A DNA stretch of 12,824 nt from Acidobacteriota bacterium (GTDB taxonomy: Bacteria; Acidobacteriota; Blastocatellia; Pyrinomonadales; Pyrinomonadaceae). The number at the start of each line of letters is the position of its first letter. Within the stretch, counting starts at the first letter, position 1. Below the pieces are notes generated by a model. It saw only the letters and a program-made list of their open reading frames with translations. It searched no databases and was not told where the DNA came from. The stretch is taken from NCBI GenBank assembly GCA_003222935.1, contig QHXL01000015.1:2723-15546 (forward strand), in the 5' to 3' direction. A program made the position numbers and the translations under genes. This document shows, in pieces, positions 801 to 12,824 of the stretch.

Positions 801-1659
801 GTGAGAAGCCTTCTATTAGTTTGTCTGTTCATAGCCTCGTCGATTCTCGTGTCGGCGCAGGATTATTCGAAGGTAGAAATCAAGGCAACAAAAGTAAACG
901 GCAACGTTTACATGCTTGAAGGTGCCGGTGGAAACATCGGCGTCTCTGTTGGACCAGACGGAATTCTGATTGTCGACGATCAATTCGCGCCCCTCGCGGA
1001 AAAGATCAGGGCGGCGCTCAGCAAACTTGGCGAAGGTAACTTGAAGTTTATTTGACGCGCCGATCATCGCTCACGATAATGTTCGGAAGAGACTCTCCAC
1101 GGAACAATACTTAGCGTTCTTCAAGCAGAAAGTTCCAGCGTCACCTAAAGAAGCGTGGCCAGTGATCACTTTCGATCAATCACTGTCAGTATATTTCAAC
1201 GGTGAGGAGATCAAAGTAATTCACTTCCCTGCCGGACATACCGACGGCGATAGCATCATCTTCTTCACGACATCGAACGTCATTCATATGGGTGACGATT
1301 TCTTCTCTGGAAGCTTTCCCTTCGTAGATCTCGACAGTGGCGGTAGTGTTCAAGGGATGGCAAAGAACATCGGCGAGATCATCCCGAAAATTTCACCCGG
1401 CGCAAAGATCATTCCCGGTCATGGTCCCATCTCATCAATCGATGATGTGAAGGCGTATCACCGCATGCTTCTCGGAACTACTGCTTTCATTCAGAAGAAG
1501 ATCAGTGCCAGGAAATCGCTGGCTCAGATTAAGAAAGAAGGTTTACCGGCAGAGTGGAAGTCGTGGGGTGAAGGTTTTATTAAGACTGATCAATGGATCG
1601 ACCTGGTCTATCTCAGTTTGACGAAACAGAAAATGGGTGGAAGGAGTAGAGCACACTAG
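801..1659 (+). pseudogene. secreted metallo-beta-lactamase-fold hydrolase, disrupted by a deletion with frameshift
   Basis: An MBL-fold metal hydrolase split over two frames. The GTG start at 801 follows GGAGG (790-794). Residues 1-19 are a signal peptide ending SAQ. The first frame runs through GGNIGVSVGPDGILIVDDQF to LKFI and stops at 1053-1055. From 1054 the next frame continues the same fold directly (DAPIIAHDNVRKRLS) and ends at 1659. It keeps the later metal motifs GHTDGD, HMGDDFF and IIPGHGP. In intact relatives LKF[IV] is followed by NTHWHxDHTGGN and about ten more residues. That segment of roughly 17-18 codons, carrying the first metal-binding motif HxHxDH, is absent, and the frame shifts as well. 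Either half alone would lack an active site. The gene is therefore a recent pseudogene, or the gap is an assembly error. Calling it two independent genes fits poorly because the halves abut within one family alignment. Confidence 0.85.
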
Positions 1660-1687
1660 ATCGCTCGATTAAAAGACTCTTGGAAAA

Positions 1688-1797
1688 CAGCGCAAGTTAG
1701 GAAAGGCGGTTTACCCCCGCTGGACTCATTAGGAGCTACTTCGAAGTCTTTATTGCCCAGTCCAGCGGGGGTAAACCGCCCTTCCTAACTTGCGCTG
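1688..1797. repeat. long inverted repeat A between convergent genes
   Basis: Two 39-bp arms (1688-1726 and 1759-1797) are reverse complements with one mismatch and enclose a 32-nt loop. The mismatch would be a G-U pair in a minus-strand transcript and an A-C mismatch in a plus-strand one. The element lies 28 bp after the hydrolase stop and 62 bp before the deoB stop, so both genes point into it. Each arm contains a smaller imperfect palindrome centred on GGTTTACC. There is no T-tract, so it is not a typical intrinsic terminator, although it could block transcription from both sides. Confidence 0.9.
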
Positions 1798-1859
1798 GTT
1801 CAAGTCCTCTTTTCCACTGGAATTGACTTTTGAAAGAGGCTCTAAAGCTCATTGATCAT

Positions 1860-3023
1860 TTAGAGTTCTCCCAGAAAACTCTTGCCGGCGACAAGTTTTA
1901 ATCCAAAGTTGTCGGCGATCGTCTGACCAATATCTGCGAGCGAGTCCCGAGTTCCCAGATCAACTGAACGAGCTTTCTTTCCGTAAACCAGGAGTGGAGC
2001 GTATTCACGCGTATGATCCGATCCGGGAAACGTAGGATCATTCCCATGGTCTGCAGTGATCATCATCAAATCTTCGTCACCCATGGCTGCTTCAATCTCA
2101 GGAAGACGTGCGTCAAAGTGCTCGAGTGCTTTTGCATAGCCTTCCGTGTCGCGTCGATGTCCGTACAACATGTCGAAATCGACCAGGTTCGAAAAAATCA
2201 GGCCACGACCCGGCCCGGCTAACGCCTTGATCGTTTGATTGATCGACTGCTCGTTATTCTTCGCAGTCATGTCTTGTGTCACACCGATCGAATCGTAGAT
2301 CGAAGCTATCTTTCCAATACAAACGACATCGAGATCGGCGTCGGCGAGTGCGGGTAGCAAATTCTCCCGCGGAGGTGGAACAGCGTAGTCGTGCCGGTTC
2401 TCAGTTCTATAAAACGCTCCCGGCTCACCAAGAAACGGACGCGCAATTACTCGTCCGACTTTGTGTTCACCATCAAGAATGCGTCGAGCAGTTTCACAAA
2501 TCTCATAAAGTCGATCGATCGGAATCACTTCTTCATGCGCGGCGATCTGAAACACAGAATCTGCCGACGTGTAGACGATCGGCTTTTTAGTATTGACGTG
2601 CTCTTGGCCCAGCACCTTGATGATCTCGGTTCCCGAGGCGGGGTAGTTACCAAGTATCCCGGGGACAGAAGTTTCGGTTACGAAACGATCGATTACGTTC
2701 GGCGGAAAACCATTCGGATAGGTTGGAAACGCGTGCTCAAGAATGATTCCGGCCATCTCCCAATGACCTGTGGTTGTATCTTTGCCGTTTGAACGAAGGG
2801 CGCAACGACCGAATGATCCAACTGCGTTTTCGACGGCCGGAAGGTCTTTGAGCGGTCGAATATTTCCCAGCCCGTAGCGTTGCAAGTTTGGCAGCAGCAA
2901 TTTGCGCGACTCGAGAATGTGTCCAAGCGTATCGGAGCCAGCGTCGCCCCATTCGGGTGCATCGGGCATTGCGCCGATACCGGCGCCGTCGAGAACGATC
3001 AATGTGATTCTATTAAATGGCAT
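1860..3023 (-). CDS. deoB: phosphopentomutase
   Basis: Interconverts ribose-1-phosphate or deoxyribose-1-phosphate with the 5-phosphates, linking nucleoside breakdown to the pentose phosphate pathway in the cytoplasm. The protein has 387 residues, typical of DeoB in the alkaline-phosphatase superfamily. Visible are the N-terminal metal motif LDGAGIGAMPDA (11-22; D12), the catalytic threonine in KDTTTGHWEM (81-90; T85), VDFDMLYGHRRD (281-292; D284, H289), and the C-terminal metal motif TADHGNDPTFPGSDHTREY (323-341; D325, H326, H337). The ATG at 3021-3023 is preceded by a weak, distant AGGA. The upstream gene is on the same strand 117 bp away, with inverted repeat B between them. Its usual partners (deoA, deoC, deoD) are not in the window. 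Nothing in the protein looks damaged. Confidence 0.96.
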   Translation of the reverse strand: MPFNRITLIVLDGAGIGAMPDAPEWGDAGSDTLGHILESRKLLLPNLQRYGLGNIRPLKDLPAVENAVGSFGRCALRSNGKDTTTGHWEMAGIILEHAFPTYPNGFPPNVIDRFVTETSVPGILGNYPASGTEIIKVLGQEHVNTKKPIVYTSADSVFQIAAHEEVIPIDRLYEICETARRILDGEHKVGRVIARPFLGEPGAFYRTENRHDYAVPPPRENLLPALADADLDVVCIGKIASIYDSIGVTQDMTAKNNEQSINQTIKALAGPGRGLIFSNLVDFDMLYGHRRDTEGYAKALEHFDARLPEIEAAMGDEDLMMITADHGNDPTFPGSDHTREYAPLLVYGKKARSVDLGTRDSLADIGQTIADNFGLKLVAGKSFLGEL

Positions 3024-3040
3024 TTTGCTTTTGTTTTTCC

Positions 3041-3143
3041 TAATGTTCGATATGCTTTAGCTTGTCGTGAGTTTGGCAAAGCGAATATGGTGTCTTGGAG
3101 CCTCTCTATTTAGTCACGACAAGCTGAAGCATATCGGACATTA
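3041..3143. repeat. long inverted repeat B, overlapping the stop codon of the VWFA gene
   Basis: Two 30-bp arms (3041-3070 and 3114-3143) match as reverse complements with two mismatches and enclose a 43-nt loop. The last three bases of the right arm (3141-3143) are the TAA stop codon of the minus-strand VWFA gene, and the left arm ends at the weak AGGA before deoB. Both mismatches would be G-U pairs in a plus-strand RNA. In the expected minus-strand transcript they would be C-A mismatches. The left arm carries a mini-palindrome GCTTTAGC. The repeat fills nearly the whole gap between the two genes. Confidence 0.88.
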
Positions 3144-4379
3144 ATTTTTCGGTGCGTAATATCCGTCCCTCGCGCGTATCTGCGCCTTGTCTTTCAAACC
3201 ACGCACTTCCAGATGAATCGCACGAAACTTTCCATCGCGCGCTTTGTTGCTTGGATAGTAACCGATGCTGTAGAGCGTGCCGATGTCGGCAGCGACTCGC
3301 GCAAACGCGTTGCGAGCGTCCGACAGGTTACTGGCAACAAAACTCCGCCCTCCTGACACTTTCGATAATTCGTTCATCTCACGTCGCGCTAGGTTATAGA
3401 GCTCTCTGCTGATCGACATGCGTTCAAACTGCCCCATCTCACAGAAGTTCGTGTAGTCTTCCGGTCTTGAGCGTGGAGCAAAGATCGCGCGATATCGCTG
3501 CAACTGTCTCTGTGAAAGCGCCAGTCGACCATCGTCCTTACAATCTCTCATCAACCGATCTTCGACAAAGTCTTCCGTGTTTACTTGAATGAAGTAACAA
3601 GCGATTCCCGCGCGCGACAATTTCATCTTCGCTTGCCCAAAATCAGAATCGCTCTGCGAATCAACTCCATCGGTTAAAGCAACAACTGCACGACGTCCGC
3701 GAACCTCTTCGCTCGGAGCTTCACGAAAAACACTATCAGCAACTCGTTCGAGTGCGTCGTAGTAAGGCGTGCCGTTGCTGCTTCCGAGATGTTCAATTGC
3801 GCGAGTGAGCGTTTGACGGTCACTAGTCAAAGGCGCGAGTACCTCGACTGTCGCGATTGGTTCTGGGCCATTCTGAGTAGTATTGAAAGCCACCACACCA
3901 ACTCGATCACCCGGTCTCAGCGCAGCAATGAAACTGTTTGCTGCTTGCCTGATCAATGTGACGTCGTCACGAGTGGAACCCGAAGTATCGAGTAGCAACG
4001 CGATTTCAAATGGTGTTTCGGTAGTGCCGAAATTGGTGATGGTCTGAGGTTTTCCATCTTCTATTATTTGAAAGTTCTCGGCACGGAGACCAGATAAGGG
4101 ACGTCCGGCGCTGTCTGTCACGACAGCGGGCACTGAAACAAGTTGCGTTTCGACGCGTACGACGTCGCCCTCGTCAACTTCGTCAGCAGCAGCCGGATCC
4201 TGTTTCCGGGGATCGCCGTTTTGCTCAGTTCCCGCAACTCTGCGGGGTCGTTGTTTCTGCTGAGCGTCCTGGTGTGCTTCAGTTGGGCTTAATGGTCGAC
4301 CAGCGGTCAGCACCGCGAAAGTGAGTAAAAAGAAGAGAGAGATTCTAAACAAACTTCGACGTTTAAGTGATGATGTCAT
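3141..4379 (-). CDS. secreted VWFA-related protein of acidobacterial type
   Basis: A 412-residue exported protein with a von Willebrand factor A domain. Residues 9-27 form a hydrophobic signal segment (LFRISLFFLLTFAVLTAG), and residues 36-72 are a polar, charged linker. Next comes a short beta region (VSVPAVVTDSAGRPLSGL, NFQIIEDGK) of the kind that precedes VWFA in this family. The VWFA domain starts near 124 and keeps its metal-binding MIDAS motif: D131-T-S133-G-S135, T204, and TDG with D237. The C-terminus has TLYSIGYYPSN and IRARDGYYAP, typical of the VWFA-related acidobacterial family known as TIGR03436. A charged insert at about 281-345 contains four cysteines together with C271, possibly disulfide-bonded. 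The ATG at 4377-4379 is preferred because a promoter lies at 4413-4440; no clear Shine-Dalgarno sequence is present. It probably acts in protein-protein contact outside the cytoplasmic membrane. The partner is unknown. Confidence 0.88.
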   Translation of the reverse strand: MTSSLKRRSLFRISLFFLLTFAVLTAGRPLSPTEAHQDAQQKQRPRRVAGTEQNGDPRKQDPAAADEVDEGDVVRVETQLVSVPAVVTDSAGRPLSGLRAENFQIIEDGKPQTITNFGTTETPFEIALLLDTSGSTRDDVTLIRQAANSFIAALRPGDRVGVVAFNTTQNGPEPIATVEVLAPLTSDRQTLTRAIEHLGSSNGTPYYDALERVADSVFREAPSEEVRGRRAVVALTDGVDSQSDSDFGQAKMKLSRAGIACYFIQVNTEDFVEDRLMRDCKDDGRLALSQRQLQRYRAIFAPRSRPEDYTNFCEMGQFERMSISRELYNLARREMNELSKVSGGRSFVASNLSDARNAFARVAADIGTLYSIGYYPSNKARDGKFRAIHLEVRGLKDKAQIRARDGYYAPKN

Positions 4380-4412
4380 GGTTGCAAATCCGGTTGGGCT
4401 CTTCTTGGTGAG

Positions 4413-4440
4413 AATATAACGGAGAACCACCCGACTGCAA
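4413..4440 (-). promoter_or_regulatory. putative promoter of the VWFA gene
   Basis: On the minus strand, TTGCAG (4440-4435) lies 16 bp before TATATT (4418-4413). Transcription would begin near 4406, about 27 nt before the ATG at 4379. This position inside the longest open frame argues that the extra 40 N-terminal codons (4380-4499) are not translated. Confidence 0.5.
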
Positions 4441-4467
4441 AAGTTGAAGCATATAACCTGACCGTCG

Positions 4468-4557
4468 TGCTGGGACCGCAGGCCCCCGCCTGCATCCATT
4501 TGCTACCAAGACGTATGGAGGCTAAAGCGGCAGGCGGGGACGCCTGCGGTCCCAGCA
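4468..4557. repeat. long GC-rich inverted repeat C with self-palindromic arms
   Basis: The arms at 4468-4493 (26 bp) and 4530-4557 (28 bp) are reverse complements apart from a 2-nt indel and enclose a 36-nt loop. Each arm folds on itself: the right arm has GCAGGCG-GGGA-CGCCTGC and the left arm GCAGGC-CCCC-GCCTGC. The unit is therefore an inverted pair of REP-like palindromes. It lies between the tRNA terminator and the VWFA promoter. The arms contain no coding sequence, although a spurious open frame runs into the left arm. Confidence 0.88.
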
Positions 4558-4561
4558 GTTG

Positions 4562-4608
4562 AAAATTAAAAAGCGGTTGCGCTTCATTTTACTGAAGTGC
4601 AACCGCTT
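4562..4608 (-). terminator. intrinsic terminator of the tRNA operon
   Basis: Read on the minus strand, 16-nt arms (4608-4593 and 4586-4571) pair with one A-C mismatch around a 6-nt loop. They are followed by TTTTTAATTTT (4572-4562). The hairpin starts 7 nt after the CCA end of tRNA-Asp, the expected position for ending the tRNA transcript. Confidence 0.85.
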
Positions 4609-4612
4609 AAAA

Positions 4613-4694
<82 letters not shown>

Positions 4695-4700
4695 AAAATC

Positions 4701-4717
4701 GATCTCGATTTGAGATC
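4701..4717 (-). other. small hairpin between the two tRNA genes
   Basis: GATCTC (4701-4706) and GAGATC (4712-4717) form a 6-bp stem with a 5-nt loop. On the minus strand it is followed by GATTTTTGC, just before tRNA-Asp. It could be a weak terminator, a processing landmark or a chance palindrome. Confidence 0.35.
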
Positions 4718-4724
4718 TCAAAGC

Positions 4725-4799
4725 TGGTAGGCACGGAGGGACTCGAACCCCCAACTTCTTCCTTGTAAGGGAAGCTGTCTACCATTGACGTACGTGCCT
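4725..4799 (-). tRNA. tRNA-Val (anticodon TAC)
   Basis: A 75-nt tRNA with CCA encoded at 4727-4725. The acceptor stem AGGCACG/CGTGCCT has 7 perfect pairs, T8-A9 follow, and the D-arm is CGTC/GACA with one terminal mismatch. The anticodon stem CTTCC/GGAAG encloses loop CTTACAA with anticodon TAC. The T-arm is GGGGG-TTCGAGT-CCCTC, and the discriminator is A73. It reads GTA and, by wobble, other valine codons. It is the promoter-proximal gene of the tRNA pair. Confidence 0.96.
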
Positions 4800-5114
4800 G
4801 TCGGAGGAAGACCCTGTCGTCTATCCTTCTTATGTTTGACGGCTTTCACTCAAGCCATCCAAAAAATCTATTTGGCACGTTCGATTCAAACATCATTGCC
4901 GCAAAGTACGGCTCCTCAAACGAGTCGTCATGCTAAGAGAAGCTCGTGGGAGTGTCAAGTTTGCCTCGTTTGAAGAAAAAAGTTTGCAGTGCTCTGTACG
5001 ATATCGATCAGTAGTAATACCGAATTACGTACAAAAACTCACTCACAAAGTAGCCTCGTAGCCGTTTAAGGTAAAAAACAGCCATTTAGGAAAACAAATA
5101 ACCGCTTTCGCCTA
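4800..5114. other. intergenic region without a recognised gene
   Basis: This 315-bp stretch separates the divergent tRNA pair and moeA transcripts. The part next to tRNA-Val must hold the minus-strand tRNA promoter, but I see only weak hexamers (for example TTGAGT near 4850) and do not assign it. An open frame at 4785-4973 begins inside tRNA-Val and has no coding character. The segment 4975-5114 is AT-rich, with no clear repeat or gene. Confidence 0.5.
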
Positions 5115-5142
5115 TTGACCGCGAAGTTATTTTGAATAAAAT
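5115..5142 (+). promoter_or_regulatory. strong sigma70-type promoter upstream of a structured leader or small RNA
   Basis: TTGACC (5115-5120), a 16-bp spacer and TAAAAT (5137-5142) match consensus at five of six bases each. This is the best promoter I can see in the window. Transcription would begin near 5149 and go straight into the structured element ending at 5247. Confidence 0.7.
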
Positions 5143-5148
5143 TCAACC

Positions 5149-5247
5149 AACGGCGCATGTGGTTGCTGGGGTGAGGACAGTAACCAACAGAGGCTGAATG
5201 CCTCCGCCAACCTTGAGAGGCCGGTCCAAACCGGCCTTTCGGTTTTT
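5149..5247 (+). ncRNA. candidate structured RNA of about 100 nt, small RNA or moeA leader
   Basis: The segment between the promoter at 5115-5142 and the terminator ending at 5247 can fold into three consecutive hairpins. Stem 1 is TGGTTGCTG/CAGTAACCA (5160-5168 with 5178-5186; nine pairs, one G-U) and presents a purine-rich loop GGGTGAGGA. Stem 2 is GAGGC/GCCTC (5190-5194 with 5200-5204). Stem 3 is the terminator hairpin. A second pairing of GGTTG (5161-5165) with CAACC (5208-5212) competes with stem 1. The transcript is noncoding and ends 26 nt before the moeA ATG, which has only a poor ribosome binding site. It is either an independent small RNA or an attenuator or riboswitch for moeA. I do not recognise it as a known class, and it does not resemble the Moco motif. 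Confidence 0.5.
5218..5247 (+). terminator. intrinsic terminator with two overlapping hairpins
   Basis: AGGCCGGT (5218-5225) pairs perfectly with ACCGGCCT (5230-5237) around a 4-nt loop and is followed by TTCGGTTTTT. An alternative 6-bp hairpin, AAACCG/CGGTTT (5228-5233 with 5240-5245), uses the right arm of the first and runs into the T-tract. The two cannot form together. The element ends the RNA that starts near 5149. Confidence 0.75.
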
Positions 5248-5273
5248 AAAGTACCGCCAGGCATGTACATCCA

Positions 5274-6485
5274 ATGATCTCAATCGCTGAAGCAATCCAA
5301 ATAGTTAAGGAACACGCCTCTCAACTTCCGACAGAGCGTGTATCTCTAGACACTTCACTCGGTCGCATTCTCGCACAGGACATAGTTGCCGATTCGGATC
5401 TGCCCCCTTTCGACCGTTCTCAAATGGACGGATATGCGGTCCGTGCAAGCGACTCACACAACGCGCCGGTTAGGTTGCGTATTGTAGGTGAATCCTCAGC
5501 GGGCAAGGGTTGGCATCAGGAAATGCATGAAGGCGAAGCAGTCCGGATTATGACTGGAGCTCCGGTCCCAGTCGGAGCCGACGCGGTCCAACAAGTCGAG
5601 TTGGCCCACGAACTCAAAGACAACACAGTCGTTGAACTGCTCGAAAGTGTAGAAGAAGGTCGCTCGATCGTCAGACGTGCCGCCGAGGTCAGCGAAGGTC
5701 AAACTGTCTTGCGTGCAGGCGTAACCATCAATGCGGCCATTCTCGCGGTACTTGCGTCGTTTGGTTATGCCGAAGTTGAAGTTGGGACCAGGCCTCGGGT
5801 AGGCGTGTTAGCGACTGGAAGTGAACTGGTAGCTGTCGATCAGAAACCTGGACAAGATCAGATTCGCGACTCAAATAACTACTCCATCGGCGCCTATGCA
5901 CAGAACGCCGGCGCGTTCGTGACTCAGTTACCACTCACCGGTGATGAAATATCCGATTTGAAGAAACAGATTTCAAAAGCTGCTGAAACTTGCGACGTGA
6001 TCGTTACTTCAGGCGGCGTGTCGATGGGAGTTTATGATTTTACGAAGACAGCGTTGACCGAGCTTGGCGCTGAACTGTTCTTCGAACGAGTCGCGCTGCG
6101 TCCCGGAAAACCAACAGTCTTTGCTCGCCTGCCACAAGGAACACTGGTGTTCGGTTTACCCGGCAACCCGGTCTCAGTTTCAGTCACTTTCAATCTCTTC
6201 GCTCGCACTGCGTTACTTGCGATGCAAGGAGCGAACAATCCGGCGCTCAAGACCGAAACAGGCGTTCTCGCGAAAGCTGTTAAAGGAGCGAAGGAGCGCG
6301 ATAGCTATCTGCCCGCGCAACTGACGACAAACGACGACGGTCAACTAATTGTATTTCCACTTAAGTGGGGAGGCTCGTCGGACTTTATCGCATTTGCCAG
6401 GGCGACCGCGCTTGCGATCATTCCGGCCGGAACGAAAACGTTGGACGCTGATTCGTTAGTGAAGTTCGTTCGGCTCCCTGAATAA
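5274..6485 (+). CDS. moeA: molybdopterin molybdenumtransferase MoeA
   Basis: Catalyses insertion of molybdate into adenylylated molybdopterin to give molybdenum cofactor, in the cytoplasm. The 403 residues match the family length. Domain signs in order are the N-terminal MoeA region with DLPPFDRSQMDGYAVR (42-57; D52) and the MTGAPVPVGADAV stretch (93-105). Next is the MPT-binding MogA-like domain, with VGVLATGSEL (176-185), VTSGGVSMGVYD (244-255; D255), LRPGKPT (275-281) and GLPGNPVSV (294-302). The C-terminal domain IV ends at LPE. The ATG at 5274 aligns with the family start but has only a weak CAGG 12 nt upstream, so leader structure may govern translation. The upstream terminator at 5218-5247 raises the possibility of attenuation. 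moaC of the same pathway lies 1.1 kb downstream, beyond a gene on the other strand. Confidence 0.95.
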   Translation: MISIAEAIQIVKEHASQLPTERVSLDTSLGRILAQDIVADSDLPPFDRSQMDGYAVRASDSHNAPVRLRIVGESSAGKGWHQEMHEGEAVRIMTGAPVPVGADAVQQVELAHELKDNTVVELLESVEEGRSIVRRAAEVSEGQTVLRAGVTINAAILAVLASFGYAEVEVGTRPRVGVLATGSELVAVDQKPGQDQIRDSNNYSIGAYAQNAGAFVTQLPLTGDEISDLKKQISKAAETCDVIVTSGGVSMGVYDFTKTALTELGAELFFERVALRPGKPTVFARLPQGTLVFGLPGNPVSVSVTFNLFARTALLAMQGANNPALKTETGVLAKAVKGAKERDSYLPAQLTTNDDGQLIVFPLKWGGSSDFIAFARATALAIIPAGTKTLDADSLVKFVRLPE

Positions 6486-6491
6486 AAAGAT

Positions 6492-6594
6492 CCTCCTTGG
6501 AGTGCGGGGACTTGTCACCGCTTTGTTATAACGTTCGTCGAGTCGAGCGAGCTTCTTTGACAAAGCGGTGACAAGTCCCCGCACTCCAAGGAGG
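6492..6594. repeat. long perfect inverted repeat D, flush with the stop codon of the desaturase gene
   Basis: Two 35-bp arms (6492-6526 and 6560-6594) are perfect reverse complements and enclose a 33-nt loop. The left arm starts 6 bp after the moeA stop. The right arm ends at 6594, immediately before the TAA (6597-6595) of the minus-strand desaturase homologue. The unit fills the whole gap between the convergent genes. Each arm contains an imperfect palindrome, GCGG-g-GAC-TT-GTC-a-CCGC. There is no T-tract. Perfect identity of the arms suggests a recent origin or gene conversion between arms. Confidence 0.93.
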
Positions 6595-7410
6595 TTACAC
6601 TTGAAGACCTGAGGCGATTCGCTCAGTCAACCCGTTGAATCCATCAAACCCGGGCAAGCGCTCAATTCTTCCGGTGACGGTGCGGTGGAAATCTTTTAAG
6701 CCGTTAGCTCCCTTGAACAAGGTCATCAACACGTAATTTGTTTCGTGTTCACGCTTGGCGCCCTGTCCCACCGGAGTCCAGAATCGAGCGATGATGAATC
6801 GCGCTAGATCCCTGGCGAACTTCTTCTCAGCCAGTTTCAGGCGTGCAATATTCCAATAGAAACTCGCATGAATTGATTCTTCCTGAACGATACCCATCGT
6901 CAGTTGTTTCAGGACTGGATGACCAGCAAGTTCCCCGAGTTTCCGATAAGCCTGGACTGCGGTCACTTCATTGATGGTTCCCCAGACCATATGAGCGGCA
7001 TGAAAGTTTTTGCCGAATGCTCGTGAGGTGTAATCGGCCACATAGCTTCCGACGAGGTAGCTTTTGGGGATGTTCTTCATCGCGTCGGATCGCCAATTCT
7101 TTCCTGTAGGGTAGCCAGCTTCTTCGAGAAATCTATTCAACAAATTTGCGTGGTGAAGCTCTTCAACGCTCCAACGATCCATGAATTTTTTTATGACAGG
7201 ATCGCGACCCGTCGGTGTTCGCATCAACTCCGTGTAATACATGTCGGTGAAGTACTCGATGTCGCGCATGTAATACAGGACAGGAACGAAAGCTTCGTTC
7301 ATTGGATAATTCTTAATGTCCTTCCAACGAATCCTGCTAACGTACTCTTTCGATAACGCACGCGGCTGTCGTTCATACCAGTCAAGGACGTCTTTGTCTG
7401 TCTCAAACAC
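6595..7410 (-). CDS. ferritin-like diiron acyl-ACP desaturase homologue
   Basis: A 271-residue soluble protein of the acyl-ACP desaturase superfamily (stearoyl-ACP desaturase fold), a four-helix bundle with two iron ions. All six expected ligands are visible in order: E52 in MRDIEYFTDMYY (48-59), E84 and H87 in EELHH (83-87), E148 in INEVTAVQAY (146-155), and E178 and H181 in QEESIHASFYW (176-186). No membrane segment or signal peptide is present. The likely role is oxygen-dependent desaturation of fatty acyl chains on acyl carrier protein, with ferredoxin as electron donor. Substrate and double-bond position cannot be read, and a different diiron oxidation is possible. It starts at GTG (7410-7408), with GGAGG (7422-7418) 7 nt upstream. 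It stands alone on the minus strand between moeA and moaC. Confidence 0.85.
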   Translation of the reverse strand: MFETDKDVLDWYERQPRALSKEYVSRIRWKDIKNYPMNEAFVPVLYYMRDIEYFTDMYYTELMRTPTGRDPVIKKFMDRWSVEELHHANLLNRFLEEAGYPTGKNWRSDAMKNIPKSYLVGSYVADYTSRAFGKNFHAAHMVWGTINEVTAVQAYRKLGELAGHPVLKQLTMGIVQEESIHASFYWNIARLKLAEKKFARDLARFIIARFWTPVGQGAKREHETNYVLMTLFKGANGLKDFHRTVTGRIERLPGFDGFNGLTERIASGLQV

Positions 7411-7635
7411 TGAGGAGCCTCCGTCTTAGGCGATGTTAGATTCTTACTCTACGGGTGTGCCCTGAAAATTGGATTTTCACGACGCCACCGGAACACTAAG
7501 AGAACGGCTGATAATTATCGGACAACCAACTGAAGAAAGACTGCCCGTGAGTGCTGATAAAAATAGACGAAATTAGCCGGAACTGTCGAGGTTTATGCTT
7601 GCTTCGAGCCTGTTTTGTGTTGTCTACTTTTGAAA
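7411..7635. other. divergent intergenic region with an AT-rich palindrome
   Basis: This 225-bp region must hold the promoters of the desaturase homologue (minus) and moaC (plus). A short palindrome TGAAAAT-TGG-ATTTTCA (7463-7479) has 7-bp perfect arms and lies 53 bp before the desaturase start, where an operator could sit. I cannot assign convincing promoter hexamers in either direction. The remainder shows no gene. Confidence 0.35.
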
Positions 7636-8109
7636 ATGAAACAGTTTTCCCATCTAGATGATCAGGGACGAATCCGTATGGTGGATACGGGCAACAAGCA
7701 GATAAGTTCCCGGCGCGCTGTCGCTTCCGGTCGGGTGCTGATGAACAGTGAAACGCTCAATGCCCTACGCGAGCGCCGAACCCCTAAAGGTGATCCACTT
7801 GAAACTGCCCGGCTGGCGGGCATCATGGCGGCCAAAAGGACTGCCGACCTGATTCCACTTTGTCATCCACTCCCACTGACGAACATCGATGTACAAGCGA
7901 CCGTAGAAGCCGACGGAATCGCACTTTCAGCTGAAGTTTCGACAAACGCTCAAACGGGAGTTGAGATGGAAGCGCTCACTGCCGTGTCGGTCGCGGCGCT
8001 AACTATTTACGACATGTGCAAAGCGCTGGATAAATCGATGACTATTTCGGAGATTCGCCTGGAAGTTAAGACTGGCGGAAAATCAGGGGATTACCAGCGA
8101 ACGACTTGA
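7636..8109 (+). CDS. moaC: cyclic pyranopterin monophosphate synthase MoaC
   Basis: Works with MoaA in the first step of molybdenum cofactor synthesis, converting the GTP-derived intermediate to cyclic pyranopterin monophosphate. At 157 residues it has family length. Conserved parts are MVDTGNK (15-21), K51 in TPKGDP, the [18 protein letters not shown] stretch (65-82; H77), [19 protein letters not shown] (108-126; E112, D126), [10 protein letters not shown] (127-136) and the glycine-rich end KTGGKSGD (145-152). The ATG at 7636 gives the standard N-terminus (MKQFSHLD). A TTG 21 bp upstream would only add unrelated residues. No Shine-Dalgarno sequence is visible, so initiation may be weak or use a very short leader. 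The gene is not adjacent to other moa genes. The M50 gene follows 110 bp later. Confidence 0.95.
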
Positions 8110-8151
8110 GCGGGAACCTGGCGCAGGAGTTCAGCGTTATCAAGTCGGTGT

Positions 8152-8180
8152 TTAGATTTTGGCGGGCACGGTCTTACAAT
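8152..8180 (+). promoter_or_regulatory. possible promoter of the M50 peptidase gene
   Basis: TACAAT (8175-8180) is a good -10 element. The -35 region 17 bp upstream (TTAGAT, 8152-8157) is poor. It would start an RNA near 8187, with a 33-nt leader before the ATG at 8220. The location right after moaC suggests that the following gene can be transcribed separately. Confidence 0.35.
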
Positions 8181-8219
8181 AGCGCCAACCCAAAACCGAA
8201 CGGACTACGGAGATTTGAA

Positions 8220-9008
8220 ATGAGAGTAAGTCTTACAAGAGATGCCAGACCCCAGGCCATGACTCTTCTGGTCGCGGCCACGATTTCGGTTCTACTTTGG
8301 TTCATTCCTTACGCCGAATTCATCGCTTATCCATTTAGAATTTTCGTTACATTCATTCACGAAGGCGGGCATGCGATAGCGGCCCTGCTTACCGGGAATT
8401 CTGTTCAGAGCTTGAGCGTCGCGACAAATGCGAGTGGCGAGACCTACACCACACAGGGCGGATTGATTTCGCAAATTGCCGTCTCCAGTGCCGGATACCT
8501 GGGGTCGATGGCATTTGGCGCTCTGCTGCTGGTTCTCATTCGCAAGTCAGTCGCGGCTCGAATCGTGTTGTTGGGTTCGGGCGCTCTGGTGTTAGGGCTG
8601 ACAACTATTTACGGACTTTTCAAACCGCTCTATAGCGGCACGTCGTGGAGCGGAATTCCCTTCACGCTGCTGGCGGGTTCGCTAATCGGAGCTGGTTTGA
8701 TCCTCATCGCCAGATTTGCCAGCGCTCGCGTCGCAAGTTTCTTTGTAAGTTTTCTTGCCGTGCAATGTGTTCTCAACGCGCTGTTCGATCTAAAGACTGT
8801 TTTCTTCCTCTCATCACCCTTTGCACCTTCAGTTCCCACTGATGCGGTGAACATGGCAAGCGCGACTGGCATTCCCGCACTCTTCTGGGCTGTTATCTGG
8901 ATTGGCCTGGCACTGGGAATTCTTTGGTTCGCGATGCGCTTGTATGTAGCGGGCCGCGATAAGGGATTCCAACCTGATCTCCCTTTCGAAGAAACTACCA
9001 CTCTCTAA
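8220..9008 (+). CDS. M50-family membrane metalloprotease homologue
   Basis: A 262-residue integral membrane protein resembling the peptidase M50B-like family (site-2-protease relatives). The zinc-binding motif HEGGH (47-51) lies inside a hydrophobic segment after the first membrane helix (about 12-30). Later features are the SSAGYLGS glycine motif (89-96) and helices near 97-108, 114-131, 148-165, 170-185 and 231-248. A conserved TDAVNMASATGIPA stretch (217-230) may supply an aspartate (D218). The protease role is inferred from the motif; some family members have no proven substrate. The start is ATG 8220, with GGAG (8209-8212) 7 nt before it. Inverted repeat E starts at the very next base after the TAA stop. 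Confidence 0.82.
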   Translation: MRVSLTRDARPQAMTLLVAATISVLLWFIPYAEFIAYPFRIFVTFIHEGGHAIAALLTGNSVQSLSVATNASGETYTTQGGLISQIAVSSAGYLGSMAFGALLLVLIRKSVAARIVLLGSGALVLGLTTIYGLFKPLYSGTSWSGIPFTLLAGSLIGAGLILIARFASARVASFFVSFLAVQCVLNALFDLKTVFFLSSPFAPSVPTDAVNMASATGIPALFWAVIWIGLALGILWFAMRLYVAGRDKGFQPDLPFEETTTL

Positions 9009-9133
9009 CGGGTAGCACAGACTTCAGTCTGTGTCGGCCATACTGAAAGGGGACTTCGATCATTTCGAAGTCCCTTTATTCATTTGATCCCAACTCAAAC
9101 GATCGGTACACAGACTGAAGTCTGTGCTACTCG
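9009..9133. repeat. nested palindromic repeat E (copy 1 of a two-copy family)
   Basis: The outer arms of 26 bp (9009-9034 and 9108-9133) are reverse complements with one mismatch. Each contains the near-perfect palindrome CACAGACTTCAGTCTGTG or its complement. Between them is an inner hairpin GGGACTTCGA/TCGAAGTCCC (9050-9059 with 9065-9074, loop 5 nt) followed by TTTATTC, so the core resembles an intrinsic terminator for the upstream plus-strand gene. The repeat begins on the base right after the M50 stop codon. The mismatch in the arms would be a G-U pair in plus-strand RNA. Confidence 0.93.
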
Positions 9134-9238
9134 CTTTATTAACTAACTCTGGTAGTAGTTCCCAGTTCCGCCTAAATTCTCAAGGTTAGACTCCTTCCAA
9201 TATTCAAGCTCGGGAAATTCTTTAATAAGGCGGAAAAT

Positions 9239-12200
9239 ATGCAGCAATCAGATTTACGGATTCCTCTGAAATCCATGCCACACAAGTTAGTGCTCTTGTT
9301 CATTACCTTTCTAAGTTTTAGTTCAGCCATCTTTGCGCAGACGCCAAACACCGCATCGATGATCGTCAACGTGGTCGACCAAAATGGCGCCGTCGTCGTA
9401 GGAGCGAACGTCTCCGTTGTAAACGACGCTACCCGAGCTACGCGCGACGCTGTGTCAGACTCAGACGGCAGGGTCACTATTCCAGCCCTGTCGCTGACAG
9501 GTACTTACACCATAACCGTCGCGAAGGAAGGCTTCGGCAAAGAGGAGCGTCACAACATCACTCTTCGTTCGGGTGAGACTGCCAGCCTGAAAGTGAGTCT
9601 TCAAGTCGGTTCTGAAAAGGCCGAGGTCACAGTGTTCGGAACCGCGGAAGGCGTGCGTGCCGATCCACAAATAGGACTTTCAGTCAGGAGCGAGCAGATC
9701 GACGAGACACCGATTCTCGGAAGAAAAGCAACAACACTACCGTTACTCAATTCTGCATTTCGCCAGGGTAAAGGCACCGGCGACCTGTTTGTGAACGCCA
9801 CATACTTCATCACCGGTGTCGGGTCGCGACGGGCAACAACCTTCGTTATTGATGGCGCCAACAACGACGAGGGCTGGGGACGTCAAACGGCAATCGCCAC
9901 TGTTCCACTGGGAGCAATTCAGGAGATAGCCATTCTCTCAAATGCTTTTTCATCCGAGTACGGCTGGACGTCAGGGCCGGCTCTAAATATCGTCACCAAA
10001 GCCGGCACAAACGAGTTTCACGGTGAAGGTTTGTTCATGTCGCGACCTGGTGATTGGCAAGCCAAGACTTTTTCAACAAAAGGCTTCTGTCCAAGCTCGG
10101 TTCCGACCTGTTTTACACCGAGTACGCTCGTCGCGATCAATCCGGTGGATATTCCTGACGCACTTTCACAAGTCTCAGGTTCAATCGGTGGTCCGATCGT
10201 CAACGACAGGACTTTCTTCTTCGCGACCGCAGACTACACTCGTCAAAACCGAACCGCATTCCTGTCGCCCACTTTACCGGCGTTCGTGTTGCCCGCTGAT
10301 GGGAATCTTGCTTACGAAGGTCACTATCGTCAGTTCCTCTTTAATGGTCGTATCGATCATAAGCTGACAGCCAAACAGAACTTGATGTTCAGGGTAAATG
10401 TCGATCGCTTTTTTGACGACAATCCGCAAGACGCCGTCGGCGGTACCAATGCCCCAAGCGTCGCGCGTCGTTACTCACGCCGGGCGTTTACGGCCCAGGT
10501 AAATCACACGACAGTTTTTAGTCCCACGCTTCTCAACGAGGCTCGCTTTTCCTATCTTCATGGCGACCCGGTAACGCTGTGGGAGGCTCAATCACTTTCA
10601 ACAACCTATACACGTGGCAGCGGTAACGGTGCGGTACCTTTCACGGTCGGACAGTCGAGGGCTTCGGATCTTTGGGGTCATCAGGTTCAGTTTGCAGACA
10701 CTCTTTCCTGGTCCCATGGTCGACATTACTTTCGTTTCGGCGGCAGTATTATCCACCACGAAGCCGGGGGAACAGGCAGCGAACCCGGAACGGCAATTCT
10801 CGGCACCTTTACCTTCCTGACTACTGACGCTTCACGAACTTTACCGCTCAACCAACTAACTCTGGCGAACGTTCAGAACTATCAACAACCAATTAACTTT
10901 GGTATTGATAGTTATGAGTTGCCTCAGTGGTTACTCACAGGCTTTGTGCAGGACAGCTTTCACGTAAACCGAAATCTGACTCTAGATCTGGGACTTCGTT
11001 ACGACCGTCAAACTCTTACCGATGCCAAAATGAACTTTGCGCCGCGACTCGGTTTCGGCTGGCATCCAGGCGGCGATTCGCGCACATCAATTCGCGGCGG
11101 TTACGGAATGTACTACACGCAGATTCGAACTAATGCTGTCGCCGGCTACCTCGTCAACGGTCTGGATGGTCTAACAACCTATACCGCTAATCCCGGACAG
11201 ACTGGTTTCCCGACTTCTTTGACTTCTGTTCCAGTCAACGTGGATCCACGAACTATACCGGCGAATCAATTGCCCGCTCGTGATATCACGATCCGGGCAG
11301 GACGACGGTCGTTCTACCAGACTCAATTCGCAAAGTACGGACTGAACTTCAATCTGCTGCCAAACTACCCGGATGAGTTAGTGAATCCTCGTAGCCAGGT
11401 GGTCTCGATCGGGGCCGAACACGAGTTCTTTAGCGGGTTGTTTTTCGGGGCGGACTACGTACATCAACATCTCAGCGACATGGATCGCACTTTTGATCTC
11501 AACGCTCCTTCGGCGATCGAGCGAACCACGATCGGATCAATCAGAACTGTTGCGGCAGCAAATGCTACCCGCCCAATCCTTCCCGCCAATGGCGGCGTGC
11601 GACAGGTCAATGTTATTACCAACCTCGGAGTTGCTGATTACGATGGCTTGCAGACTCTGTTGACCTATCGAGGCAATCGTCGAATGTATGCTTCTGTAAG
11701 TTACACACTTTCCAAGGCAACCAACACGAGTGAACCTGACGGTAATGGTATTGGACCAAACGAGACCGTTCTTTCGCGGCTGGGTGAAGTAGAACGCGGG
11801 CCAAGTGTTGTAGACCAACGCCATCGCGCGGTTATGACTTTCACCTATCGGTTCCCATACAACATCTCCGCCGGGACGCTTGCGATGCTTGCGTCAGCCA
11901 GACCTTTTAATGCGACAACCGGAGTGGACAACAACGGCGACGGCATCTTGAATGATCGACCGGTTGTGAACGGGCAAATCATTCACAAGTCGGCGTTTCG
12001 CGGAACTCCGACTTCAGAAGTAGCGGCTTTCGTTGAGGGTCGCATCAAGACGTCGGAGCGCACCAGCATCTTGTTGCGCTTCGAGGGCTTCAATCTTTTC
12101 AACCATGGAAACTTTCTGGCGAGAGGCGTAACGGTTTACGGGGATGCCGCAAGCCCGGCTGCAACATTCGGGCAGTTCGTGGGCGGACTTGGTACCAGCA

Positions 12201-12274
12201 CCAATGCGATTCCAGCATTCGCAAATATCGACCCACCACGCACCTTCCAACTCCAGGCAAGATTTATTTTCTAG
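9239..12274 (+). CDS. TonB-dependent receptor, Oar-like, with carboxypeptidase-regulatory-like domain
   Basis: A 1011-residue outer-membrane protein. Residues 15-33 are a signal peptide (LLFITFLSFSSAIFA). Residues 40-125 form a carboxypeptidase-regulatory-like beta sandwich (VVDQNGAVVVGANVSV to LKVSLQVGS). A plug-like region follows, with FVIDG (202-206), IQEIAILSNAFSSEYG (227-242) and NIVTKAGTNEFHGEGLF (250-266). The rest is a beta barrel with alternating strands such as DLGLRYDRQ and the FLFNGRIDHKL segment, ending in the aromatic FQLQARFIF. This layout is common in acidobacterial Oar-like receptors that take up or bind large substrates such as peptides or glycans; the ligand here is unknown. 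The ATG at 9239 follows AAGGCGG (9228-9234). An alternative ATG at 9275 would give a shorter signal peptide but lacks a ribosome binding site. Copies of the same palindromic repeat lie on both sides. Confidence 0.9.
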   Translation: MQQSDLRIPLKSMPHKLVLLFITFLSFSSAIFAQTPNTASMIVNVVDQNGAVVVGANVSVVNDATRATRDAVSDSDGRVTIPALSLTGTYTITVAKEGFGKEERHNITLRSGETASLKVSLQVGSEKAEVTVFGTAEGVRADPQIGLSVRSEQIDETPILGRKATTLPLLNSAFRQGKGTGDLFVNATYFITGVGSRRATTFVIDGANNDEGWGRQTAIATVPLGAIQEIAILSNAFSSEYGWTSGPALNIVTKAGTNEFHGEGLFMSRPGDWQAKTFSTKGFCPSSVPTCFTPSTLVAINPVDIPDALSQVSGSIGGPIVNDRTFFFATADYTRQNRTAFLSPTLPAFVLPADGNLAYEGHYRQFLFNGRIDHKLTAKQNLMFRVNVDRFFDDNPQDAVGGTNAPSVARRYSRRAFTAQVNHTTVFSPTLLNEARFSYLHGDPVTLWEAQSLSTTYTRGSGNGAVPFTVGQSRASDLWGHQVQFADTLSWSHGRHYFRFGGSIIHHEAGGTGSEPGTAILGTFTFLTTDASRTLPLNQLTLANVQNYQQPINFGIDSYELPQWLLTGFVQDSFHVNRNLTLDLGLRYDRQTLTDAKMNFAPRLGFGWHPGGDSRTSIRGGYGMYYTQIRTNAVAGYLVNGLDGLTTYTANPGQTGFPTSLTSVPVNVDPRTIPANQLPARDITIRAGRRSFYQTQFAKYGLNFNLLPNYPDELVNPRSQVVSIGAEHEFFSGLFFGADYVHQHLSDMDRTFDLNAPSAIERTTIGSIRTVAAANATRPILPANGGVRQVNVITNLGVADYDGLQTLLTYRGNRRMYASVSYTLSKATNTSEPDGNGIGPNETVLSRLGEVERGPSVVDQRHRAVMTFTYRFPYNISAGTLAMLASARPFNATTGVDNNGDGILNDRPVVNGQIIHKSAFRGTPTSEVAAFVEGRIKTSERTSILLRFEGFNLFNHGNFLARGVTVYGDAASPAATFGQFVGGLGTSTNAIPAFANIDPPRTFQLQARFIF

Positions 12275-12396
12275 CGGGTAGCATAGACTTCAGTCTGTGC
12301 CTGCAAAAGTAAAGGGGACGTCGAGATATCTCGGCGTCCCTCTTCTTGTTCACCTACCTAAACGATGGAGACACAGACTGAAGTCTGTGCTACTCG
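12275..12396. repeat. nested palindromic repeat F (copy 2 of a two-copy family)
   Basis: It has the same architecture as the repeat at 9009. The outer arms are 25 bp (12275-12299 and 12372-12396) with two mismatches. The inner hairpin is GGGACGTCGAGA/TCTCGGCGTCCC (12315-12326 with 12329-12340), followed by TCTTCTTGTT. It begins on the base after the TonB receptor stop codon (TAG, 12272-12274) and ends 1 bp before the stop codon of the minus-strand gene. All three mismatches become G-U pairs in plus-strand RNA. Conserved bits outside the arms include AAAGGGGAC and the AAACGAT segment before the right arm. Confidence 0.93.
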
Positions 12397-12397
12397 C

Positions 12398-12824
12398 TTA
12401 TCGACTGACCGTGTATTGATCGAAGTAAGTTACGCTGTCGGTCTTCGACCAGGCTCCAACTCTTCCGGAGACTACTTCGGCCAACGTGTAGTCAAGCAGA
12501 TGTATTCCATCCAAAGAAGCTTGTAAGGCAGTTCCCTTAACGCCTATTTCCAGTGTGTGCCAGGTGCCCTTCTCGAGCGGGACGTTCTCACTTCCCTTCT
12601 TCACAAACGAACGTTTGCCATGCACAAAAGTCCAGAGCACGACATTGTCTTCCTTGCCATTGAAACGGACCGTCAAGTAATCGCCGTTAGGCTTTAAGTT
12701 GAAGAGTATTCCCGCACACGAATCAAGCTGACCAGCAACAAGCTTGAAACGCATACTGATTGTGCCATCGTGAAAGTCGTCCACTTCCTTCAACACCGCA
12801 TAAGGAAAATAAGCAAACGCTTTT
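12398..12824 (-). CDS. lectin-like or DUF1080-like domain protein, 5' end beyond the window
   Basis: The C-terminal 141 residues are visible; the frame stays open to the window edge, so the start is outside. A GTG at 12796 is probably internal, because the same frame reads KAFAYFPYAV before it and no Shine-Dalgarno sequence is present. The sequence is beta-rich: DFHDGTISMRFKLVAG, AGILFNLKPNGDYLTVRF, VLWTFVHGKR, TWHTLEIGVKG, VSGRVGAWSKTD. This pattern matches concanavalin-like jelly-roll domains (LamG/3-keto-disaccharide hydrolase DUF1080 type) that bind or act on sugars. No catalytic residue can be named from this part, and whether it is exported is unknown. Repeat F separates it by 1 bp from convergent transcription of the receptor gene. 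Confidence 0.65.
   Translation of the reverse strand, partial: KAFAYFPYAVLKEVDDFHDGTISMRFKLVAGQLDSCAGILFNLKPNGDYLTVRFNGKEDNVVLWTFVHGKRSFVKKGSENVPLEKGTWHTLEIGVKGTALQASLDGIHLLDYTLAEVVSGRVGAWSKTDSVTYFDQYTVSR

What the first reader, a model, noticed from the sequence alone, without database searches (positions are those of the whole stretch)
1688..12396. Six long inverted repeats of five sequence families in one window, resembling paired REP-like palindromes
Repeats at 1688, 3041, 4468, 6492, 9009 and 12275 share one plan: two arms of 25-39 bp in inverted orientation, separated by roughly 32-75 nt. Sequences differ between families, yet most arms contain a small imperfect palindrome, usually with a 2-nt centre (GGT-TT-ACC, GCT-TT-AGC, GAC-TT-GTC, AGACT-TC-AGTCT). 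That is the form of a BIME: two REP-like units head to head. Five families side by side is unusual. RAYT (TnpA-REP) transposases are known to be associated with REP elements. Their involvement here is inference; none is present in the window.
Basis: partly seen in the sequence, partly recalled or inferred. Interest (0 to 1): 0.75.

Follow-up and report, generated by a model that had tools for sequence, protein, structure and literature searches.

The report
Five REPIN families with matching RAYTs
The six long inverted repeats are copies of five families of small mobile DNA hairpins (REPINs) scattered by the hundred through a soil acidobacterium's genome, and each family can be matched, firmly or tentatively, to its own kind of copying enzyme (a RAYT transposase); this is a known type of element, here in a little-studied phylum and unusually varied in one stretch.

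Summary
In detail: six inverted repeats of five families, far beyond chance. They are not locus-specific. In the same 5.19-Mb genome the arms recur 632 times at up to 3 mismatches (A1 83, A2 250, C 113, D 76, E 110), with no match to reversed-pattern controls. Arms form inverted pairs with near-identical ends and near-random spacers, often right behind stop codons: the anatomy of REPINs. One RAYT gene of this genome lies between two A1 REPINs, and RAYTs of other genomes are bracketed by E- and C-like arms, with fewer cases for D and one distant case for A2. RAYT ORFs carry the same family on both sides in 12 of 94 cases against 0 of 270 other ORFs. What is new is modest: the phylum, five families in 11 kb, and a GTAG-type arm (E) that recurs letter for letter in Ignavibacteria and Bacteroidetes. 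Open: this genome and two near-complete relatives hold many E arms but no close E-type RAYT.

The parts
1685..1800 (.). REPIN of family A1 (arms 1685-1726 and 1759-1800), between two convergent stop codons (1659 and 1860)
   Evidence: 83 arm copies in genome; RAYT between two A1 REPINs at G000:C52; fold z -12.4
3041..3143 (.). REPIN of family A2 (arms 3041-3070 and 3114-3143); its right end overlaps the stop codon of the VWA gene (3141-4499, -)
   Evidence: 250 arm copies in genome; fold z -9.0; only a distant A2-like RAYT neighbourhood (L322)
4470..4555 (.). REPIN of family C (arms 4470-4493, with a 2-nt deletion, and 4530-4555), between the start region of the VWA gene and tRNA-Asp (4615-4691, -)
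   Evidence: 113 arm copies in genome; fold z -8.8; C-like arms on both sides of RAYTs L265 and L303 and beside L266
6492..6594 (.). REPIN of family D (arms 6492-6526 and 6560-6594, 100% complementary), nearly filling the gap between the stop codons of moeA (ends 6485, +) and of the next gene (ends 6595, -); GGAG head
   Evidence: 76 arm copies; D-like arms at RAYT L436 and at a short RAYT-like ORF in L283
9009..9133 (.). REPIN of family E (arms 9009-9034 and 9108-9133), starting directly after the stop codon of the M50B-like gene (9008); GTAG head; inner hairpin in the spacer
   Evidence: 110 arm copies; RAYTs flanked by E in other genomes
12273..12398 (.). REPIN of family E (arms 12273-12305 and 12366-12398), filling the gap between two convergent stop codons (12274 +, 12398 -)

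Best explanation
Each repeat is a REPIN: two REP units in inverted orientation around a short spacer, a non-autonomous mobile hairpin. A REP-associated tyrosine transposase (RAYT, a Y1 HUH single-strand transposase) of the matching clade recognises the REP hairpin with its unpaired foot (GTAG for E, GGAG for D) in single-stranded DNA, cleaves beside it and copies or moves the doublet to new sites. Because only the arms are recognised, arms stay near-identical and spacers drift. Copies settle mainly just behind stop codons, where a long bidirectional hairpin is tolerated and may act on transcript ends. Shown here: dispersal, pairing, arm/spacer contrast, closeness to 3' ends, RAYT flanking, and agreement of families with RAYT clades. 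Inferred from published work on E. coli and Pseudomonas: cleavage and transposition chemistry, and any effect on transcripts. A1 has its RAYT in this genome; the other four families are matched only through other genomes, A2 weakly.
For: 632 arm copies at up to 3 mismatches with 0 reversed-pattern matches. 24 of 30 loci fetched for exact E arms show an inverted partner at up to 3 mismatches, 21 of them within 120 nt, always GTAG outward (five pairs of these loci cover one element each). Arms 0.91-0.96 identical between elements, spacers 0.48-0.67 against 0.46-0.58 for shuffles. Own genome: RAYT at G000:C52 (L168:2182-2904; NF047646 85.9 bits, cut-off 80) with an A1 REPIN about 25 nt before and 28 nt after the ORF. 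A1-like arms lie beside 6 of 11 fetched A1-type RAYTs (57-70% identity) of relatives, in 5 of them on both sides, with hairpin positions changing together in L177 and L179. E arms lie on both sides of the 3 fetched E-type RAYT loci of at least 57% identity in relatives (one side of L304 at 5 mismatches of 22) and in Terriglobia SRVP_13, S-RSF-IL-17 and palsa_91. Same family on both sides: 12 of 94 RAYT ORFs, 0 of 270 other ORFs, Fisher p 5e-8. 19 labelled RAYTs need 4 label changes on the tree, the minimum for five families (D and A2 have one row each).
Against: No E-type RAYT match in this genome (0 at E up to 0.001; assembly 88.6% complete); near-complete relatives G017 and G043 carry 67 and 54 E arms but their best matches are 46% and 34% identical. 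For C, D and A2 no matching RAYT was seen in the own genome. A2 rests on one distant case (L322). 5 of 11 A1-type RAYTs have no A1-like arm, and 74 of 93 RAYT rows carry none of the five families; other REPs may serve them, untested for most. Arms on any one side are only mildly commoner at RAYTs (17 of 94) than at other ORFs (23 of 270, p 0.02). A1 and A2 arms alone are weak palindromes. No transposition was observed.
Confidence: 0.93

Rival explanations
1. They are bidirectional transcription terminators or mRNA-stabilising hairpins of the host, amplified and kept for that role, and their likeness to mobile REPs is secondary.
For: 42 of 80 facing 3' ends lie within 20 nt of an element against 11 of 66 facing 5' ends; all six fold into very stable stems; the two E spacers carry a further strong hairpin.
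Against: Near-identical arms in 76-250 copies per family need a copying mechanism; RAYT genes are bracketed by the arms; families follow RAYT clades. A role at 3' ends and mobility are compatible, so this is a rival only as the origin.
Confidence: 0.04
2. They are terminal inverted repeats of TIRYT-type elements (the TIRtrons described for Acidobacteria and Stenotrophomonas), that is, derivatives of longer transposase-bearing elements, and not REP doublets.
For: A1, A2 and C lack a GTAG foot; the arms are long; in PMC3733652 the Acidobacteria passage concerns TIRYTs (passages and section 16).
Against: E and D carry GTAG/GGAG feet and small palindromes; enzymes beside A1, E, C and D arms score as NF047646 REP-associated tyrosine transposase above cut-off (L168, L264, L265, L436); RAYT loci are flanked by whole doublets as well as single arms. 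For A1 the border between RAYT and TIRYT is partly a matter of naming and was not tested.
Confidence: 0.03

Closest known systems
REPINs and RAYTs of Pseudomonas fluorescens SBW25 (groups GI-GIII; PMC3116915, abstract and passages seen)
   Same: REP doublets in inverted orientation, conserved ends, less conserved spacer, extragenic, each group near its own RAYT; several groups in one genome.
   Different: Five families instead of three; the paper reports compensatory changes along the hairpin, whereas here the two halves of a spacer show no covariation; other sequences, other phylum.
GTAG-tagged REP superfamily (PMC3733652; abstract and passages, section 4 part 1 of 4, section 16 seen)
   Same: Family E has the GTAG foot, a short-loop stem and head-to-head dimers; most dimers there lie 20-100 bp apart; species with several families have several REPtrons.
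   Different: GTAG repeats are listed there for Proteobacteria, Cyanobacteria, Chloroflexi and the PVC group; Acidobacteria are named for TIRYT genes. The figure with family consensus sequences is not held, so identity of E with a published family could not be checked. A1, A2 and C lack the foot.
E. coli REP/BIME with TnpA-REP (PMC8266576, passages seen)
   Same: Two REPs inverted around a linker, Y1 HUH enzyme, GTAG foot.
   Different: E. coli BIMEs are mosaics of REP types, here both arms of a pair are of one family; E. coli REPs carry a bulge, the E stem has none.

Membership tests
REPIN (REP doublet) | Short palindromic units repeated many times, mostly outside genes | tested here: met
   76-250 arms per family; 8 elements lie mostly inside a called ORF (A1 0, A2 2, C 2, D 3, E 1); small palindrome clear for E, D, C, weak for A1, A2
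REPIN (REP doublet) | Two units in inverted orientation at short, fairly constant distance | tested here: met
   101 pairs listed (spacers 15-90 nt; one in L160 is an overlap artefact); median spacer 32-43 nt per family
REPIN (REP doublet) | Ends conserved, spacer less conserved | tested here: met
REPIN (REP doublet) | Same REP flanks a RAYT gene | tested here: met
   A1 in own genome; E and C in other genomes; D in L436 and beside a short ORF in L283; A2 one distant case, L322
REPIN (REP doublet) | Transposition or excision of the doublet | not testable with these tools
   no reads or series of close strains
RAYT (flanking enzymes) | Y1 HUH domain and REP-associated tyrosine transposase model | tested here: met
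   Pfam Y1_Tnp in 8 of 8 tested, 7 over cut-off; NF047646 over its cut-off of 80 in 5 of 8, below it in L272 (78.7), L429 (71.4) and L322 (61.7)
GTAG superfamily of REPs | Unpaired GTAG foot next to the stem (family E) | tested here: met
   E: GTAG unpaired beside a 7-bp stem
GTAG superfamily of REPs | Unpaired GTAG foot next to the stem (families A1, A2, C, D) | tested here: not met
   D has GGAG; A1, A2 and C have no such foot
CGTC superfamily of REPs (for A2) | CGTC or TGTC tag with A-T pairs at the first two stem positions | tested here: not met
   A2 starts TGTC but its stem starts with C-G and G-C; definition from PMC3733652 section 4

The most novel reading that the evidence does not exclude
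Family E is a REP whose recognition by its RAYT clade has been frozen across phyla: the same 22 letters are a repeated element in Acidobacteriota, Ignavibacteria and Bacteroidetes, and E populations persist, and perhaps still copy, in genomes without a close cognate RAYT, served in trans by a diverged or transferred enzyme.
Probability: 0.25. Interest if true: 0.6.

Novelty: new member of a known kind. Interest (0 to 1): 0.4.

Why it matters
It extends well-studied REPIN/RAYT systems to Blastocatellia, with five co-resident families and natural sets of RAYTs whose REPs have changed or stayed the same. That gives a ready comparative set for the open question of how RAYTs read their REPs, and genomes in which a REP population seems to outlive its enzyme.

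Tried and rejected
Locus-specific structures: rejected, arms are dispersed. Chance: rejected. Spacer structure kept by compensatory change: each spacer's two halves were compared with halves of other spacers; no family showed an excess, so it is not claimed. Enrichment between convergent genes: not seen (16 of 73 elements, 26 of 97 control gaps); only closeness to stop codons is claimed. A2 and the double-Y1 gene on C165: one A2 arm lies about 170 nt away, but that gene is bracketed by another palindrome, so no link is claimed. Loose C-like matches near L315, L330 and L268: on reading not the same hairpin or too far, not counted. Rfam: besides the two tRNAs only matches far below gathering scores, two of them microRNA models on the A1 stem, taken as chance. 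Literature: the held library gave no paper with any of six arm strings and none with both 'repetitive extragenic palindrom' and 'Blastocatell'. RAYT, Acidobacteri and palindrom together gave 4 papers; PMC3733652 and PMC6006769 were opened, PMC7305122 and PMC6776889 (one RAYT occurrence each) were not. Figures and supplements were not seen.

Full report
What is in the window. Five of the six inverted repeats come out of an ungapped search at 88-100% complementarity; the sixth, at 4470-4555, has a 2-nt gap in its left arm. All six fold far below shuffles. Windows simulated from the same dinucleotides never gave arms of 25 nt or more (0 of 200; observed 4). The window is G000:C427:2723-15546 of a 695-contig, 5.19-Mb genome, 88.64% complete. 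Genomes of the same genus can be tied to named MAGs: G111, reached from a JAVEDP01 contig (Pyrinomonadaceae BP_18), has the same RAYT places as G004, and E-bearing contigs of G009 and G011 equal in length and position those of JACDCK01 (Pyrinomonadaceae MGR_bin306) and JACCVY01 (Blastocatellia MGR_bin138). So the window is most likely from a Pyrinomonadaceae bacterium; this is inference.

Dispersal. With up to 3 mismatches the own genome holds A1 44+39, A2 136+114, C 59+54, D 38+38 and E 54+56 arms on the two strands, 632 in all, and no match to any pattern read backwards. 52 of the 110 E arms are exact (rows counted). E is nearly self-complementary, so a few arms may be counted on both strands (one seen, L028). 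Of 30 loci fetched for exact E arms, 24 show an inverted partner at up to 3 mismatches, GTAG outward, 21 of them within 120 nt (five pairs of loci cover one element each). One search lists 101 pairs (A1 17, A2 23, C 17, D 20, E 24) from the held loci and the window, with spacers of 15-90 nt; one E entry in L160 is an overlap artefact.

Arms against spacers. Over 97 pairs without N and with spacers of 15-80 nt (A1 17, A2 22, C 16, D 20, E 22) mean arm identity is 0.91-0.96. Mean spacer identity is 0.48-0.67 against 0.46-0.58 for shuffled spacers, and the best single pair per family reaches 0.77-0.94. So spacers are clearly related only between some copies. The two halves of a spacer do not complement each other better than halves of different spacers (421 to 1924 of 2000 permutations reach the observed mean), unlike the compensatory pattern reported for Pseudomonas REPINs (PMC3116915, passages).

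Place. Among 73 elements with a called ORF on both sides, 42 of 80 facing 3' ends lie within 20 nt, and 11 of 66 facing 5' ends (medians 17.5 and 93 nt; simple caller, ORFs of 100 aa or more; elements without two neighbours dropped). In the window, D and the second E take up nearly the whole gap between two stop codons, the first E starts one base after a stop codon, and A2 overlaps one. The share between convergent genes does not exceed that of control gaps.

The enzyme. Pfam PF01797 gives 15 matches in the own genome. The one on C52 is a 240-aa RAYT (NF047646 85.9 bits, cut-off 80) with a whole A1 REPIN on each side. A broken A1-type copy is on C553. Among 96 relatives the A1 RAYT has homologues of 57-70% identity in 11 fetched loci; A1-like arms lie beside 6 of them (L177, L178, L179, L182 and L187 on both sides, L185 on one). 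The pair around the TT loop is T-A in A1 and C-G in L177 and L179 (read).

E is present at up to 1 mismatch in 15 of 96 relatives, patchily. Scanning 70 Y1 loci of six E-bearing genomes and four others gave 17 arm hits, 0 in one shuffle of each (some loci overlap), among them a RAYT of G012 with E on both sides (L264). At 57% identity or more to the G004 enzyme, E-type RAYTs were found in G004, G012 and G044 only; the three fetched genes are bracketed by E, the far side of L304 at 5 mismatches, and the G044 gene has a stop inside. A further 73-residue fragment in G044 was not fetched. In 15 genomes reached through exact E arms (one of them G004 again), homologues are bracketed by E or E variants in Terriglobia SRVP_13 (L429), S-RSF-IL-17 (L427) and palsa_91 (L439; in L428 E lies about 520 nt off on one side). 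The Ignavibacteriales UBA8501 RAYT, 37% identical, has E-like doublets on both sides at 4-5 mismatches (L431). C-like arms bracket RAYTs L265 and L303 and lie beside L266; D-like arms lie at both ends of L436 (5 mismatches) and beside a short RAYT-like ORF in L283, which was too weak (profile E 3.5e-8) for the sets below; A2-like arms surround L322.

Controls. From 127 hits of a RAYT profile, 98 ORFs (130-400 aa, E up to 1e-10) were scanned with 500-nt flanks; 20 carry one of the five families, 0 hits in shuffled flanks. In one search the loci fetched because of an arm were left out, so the own A1 RAYT is not counted: 12 of 94 RAYT ORFs have the same family on both sides against 0 of 270 ORFs more than 520 nt from any RAYT-like ORF (Fisher p 5e-8), while any-side counts differ little (17 of 94, 23 of 270, p 0.02). 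Of 26 IS200-like Y1 loci 2 had an arm on one side and 0 on both. On a tree of 93 RAYTs (150 aa or more) 19 rows carry a label; 4 changes suffice for five labels, the least possible. That tree is a quick one with SH-aLRT only, D and A2 have one row each, and 74 rows carry none of the five families.

What does not fit. The E-type RAYT gives 0 matches in the own genome. G017 and G043, both near-complete, hold 67 and 54 E arms, but their best matches to it are 46% and 34% identical. For C, D and A2 no matching RAYT was seen in the own genome either. So four of five families here have no visible enzyme: lost, unassembled (REP-flanked genes break assemblies, an inference), or served in trans.

Across phyla. 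At up to 1 mismatch the counts are 9, 2 and 17 in three Ignavibacteria, 3, 1 and 16 in three Bacteroidetes, 1 in the Armatimonadetes, and 1-47 in eight acidobacterial genomes, reversed control 0 in all 15 (genomes were chosen because they hold E). MAG contamination cannot be excluded, least of all for the low counts.

Verdict. REPINs of five families with RAYT partners: a known kind, new members, in a phylum for which PMC3733652 (parts seen) names TIRYT genes but does not list GTAG repeats.

Noticed in passing
window 801-1659: Two ORFs (801-1055 and 1162-1659) look by eye like two pieces of one metallo-beta-lactamase-fold hydrolase with the middle missing or out of frame (recalled likeness; the second piece has no Pfam hit). 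Broken gene or assembly error.
   Followed up: no
window 9009-12398: The outer-membrane receptor-like gene (9239-12274) lies between two E REPINs whose spacers both hold a strong inner hairpin with paired differences.
   Followed up: partly
L166 (G000:C165), L167 (G000:C161): Two Y1 transposase domains in tandem; the C165 gene, with a stop in one part, is bracketed by copies of a further palindrome (CCACCAACGGCAGTTGGTGG), not found elsewhere in the held own-genome loci.
   Followed up: partly
L170 (G000:C545:5000-10873): Two back-to-back copies of a Y1 gene with an NHVH motif, resembling class 3 of PMC6006769 (passages).
   Followed up: no
L201, L202, L205: RAYTs of another clade with other inverted pairs beside them: different sequences on both sides in L201 and in L202, and a pair on one side in L205, so more REPIN families exist in these relatives.
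   Followed up: no
window 4566-4614 and 5160-5247: A terminator-like inverted repeat beside tRNA-Asp, and a structured-looking leader with a terminator-like stem upstream of moeA that matches no Rfam family.
   Followed up: no
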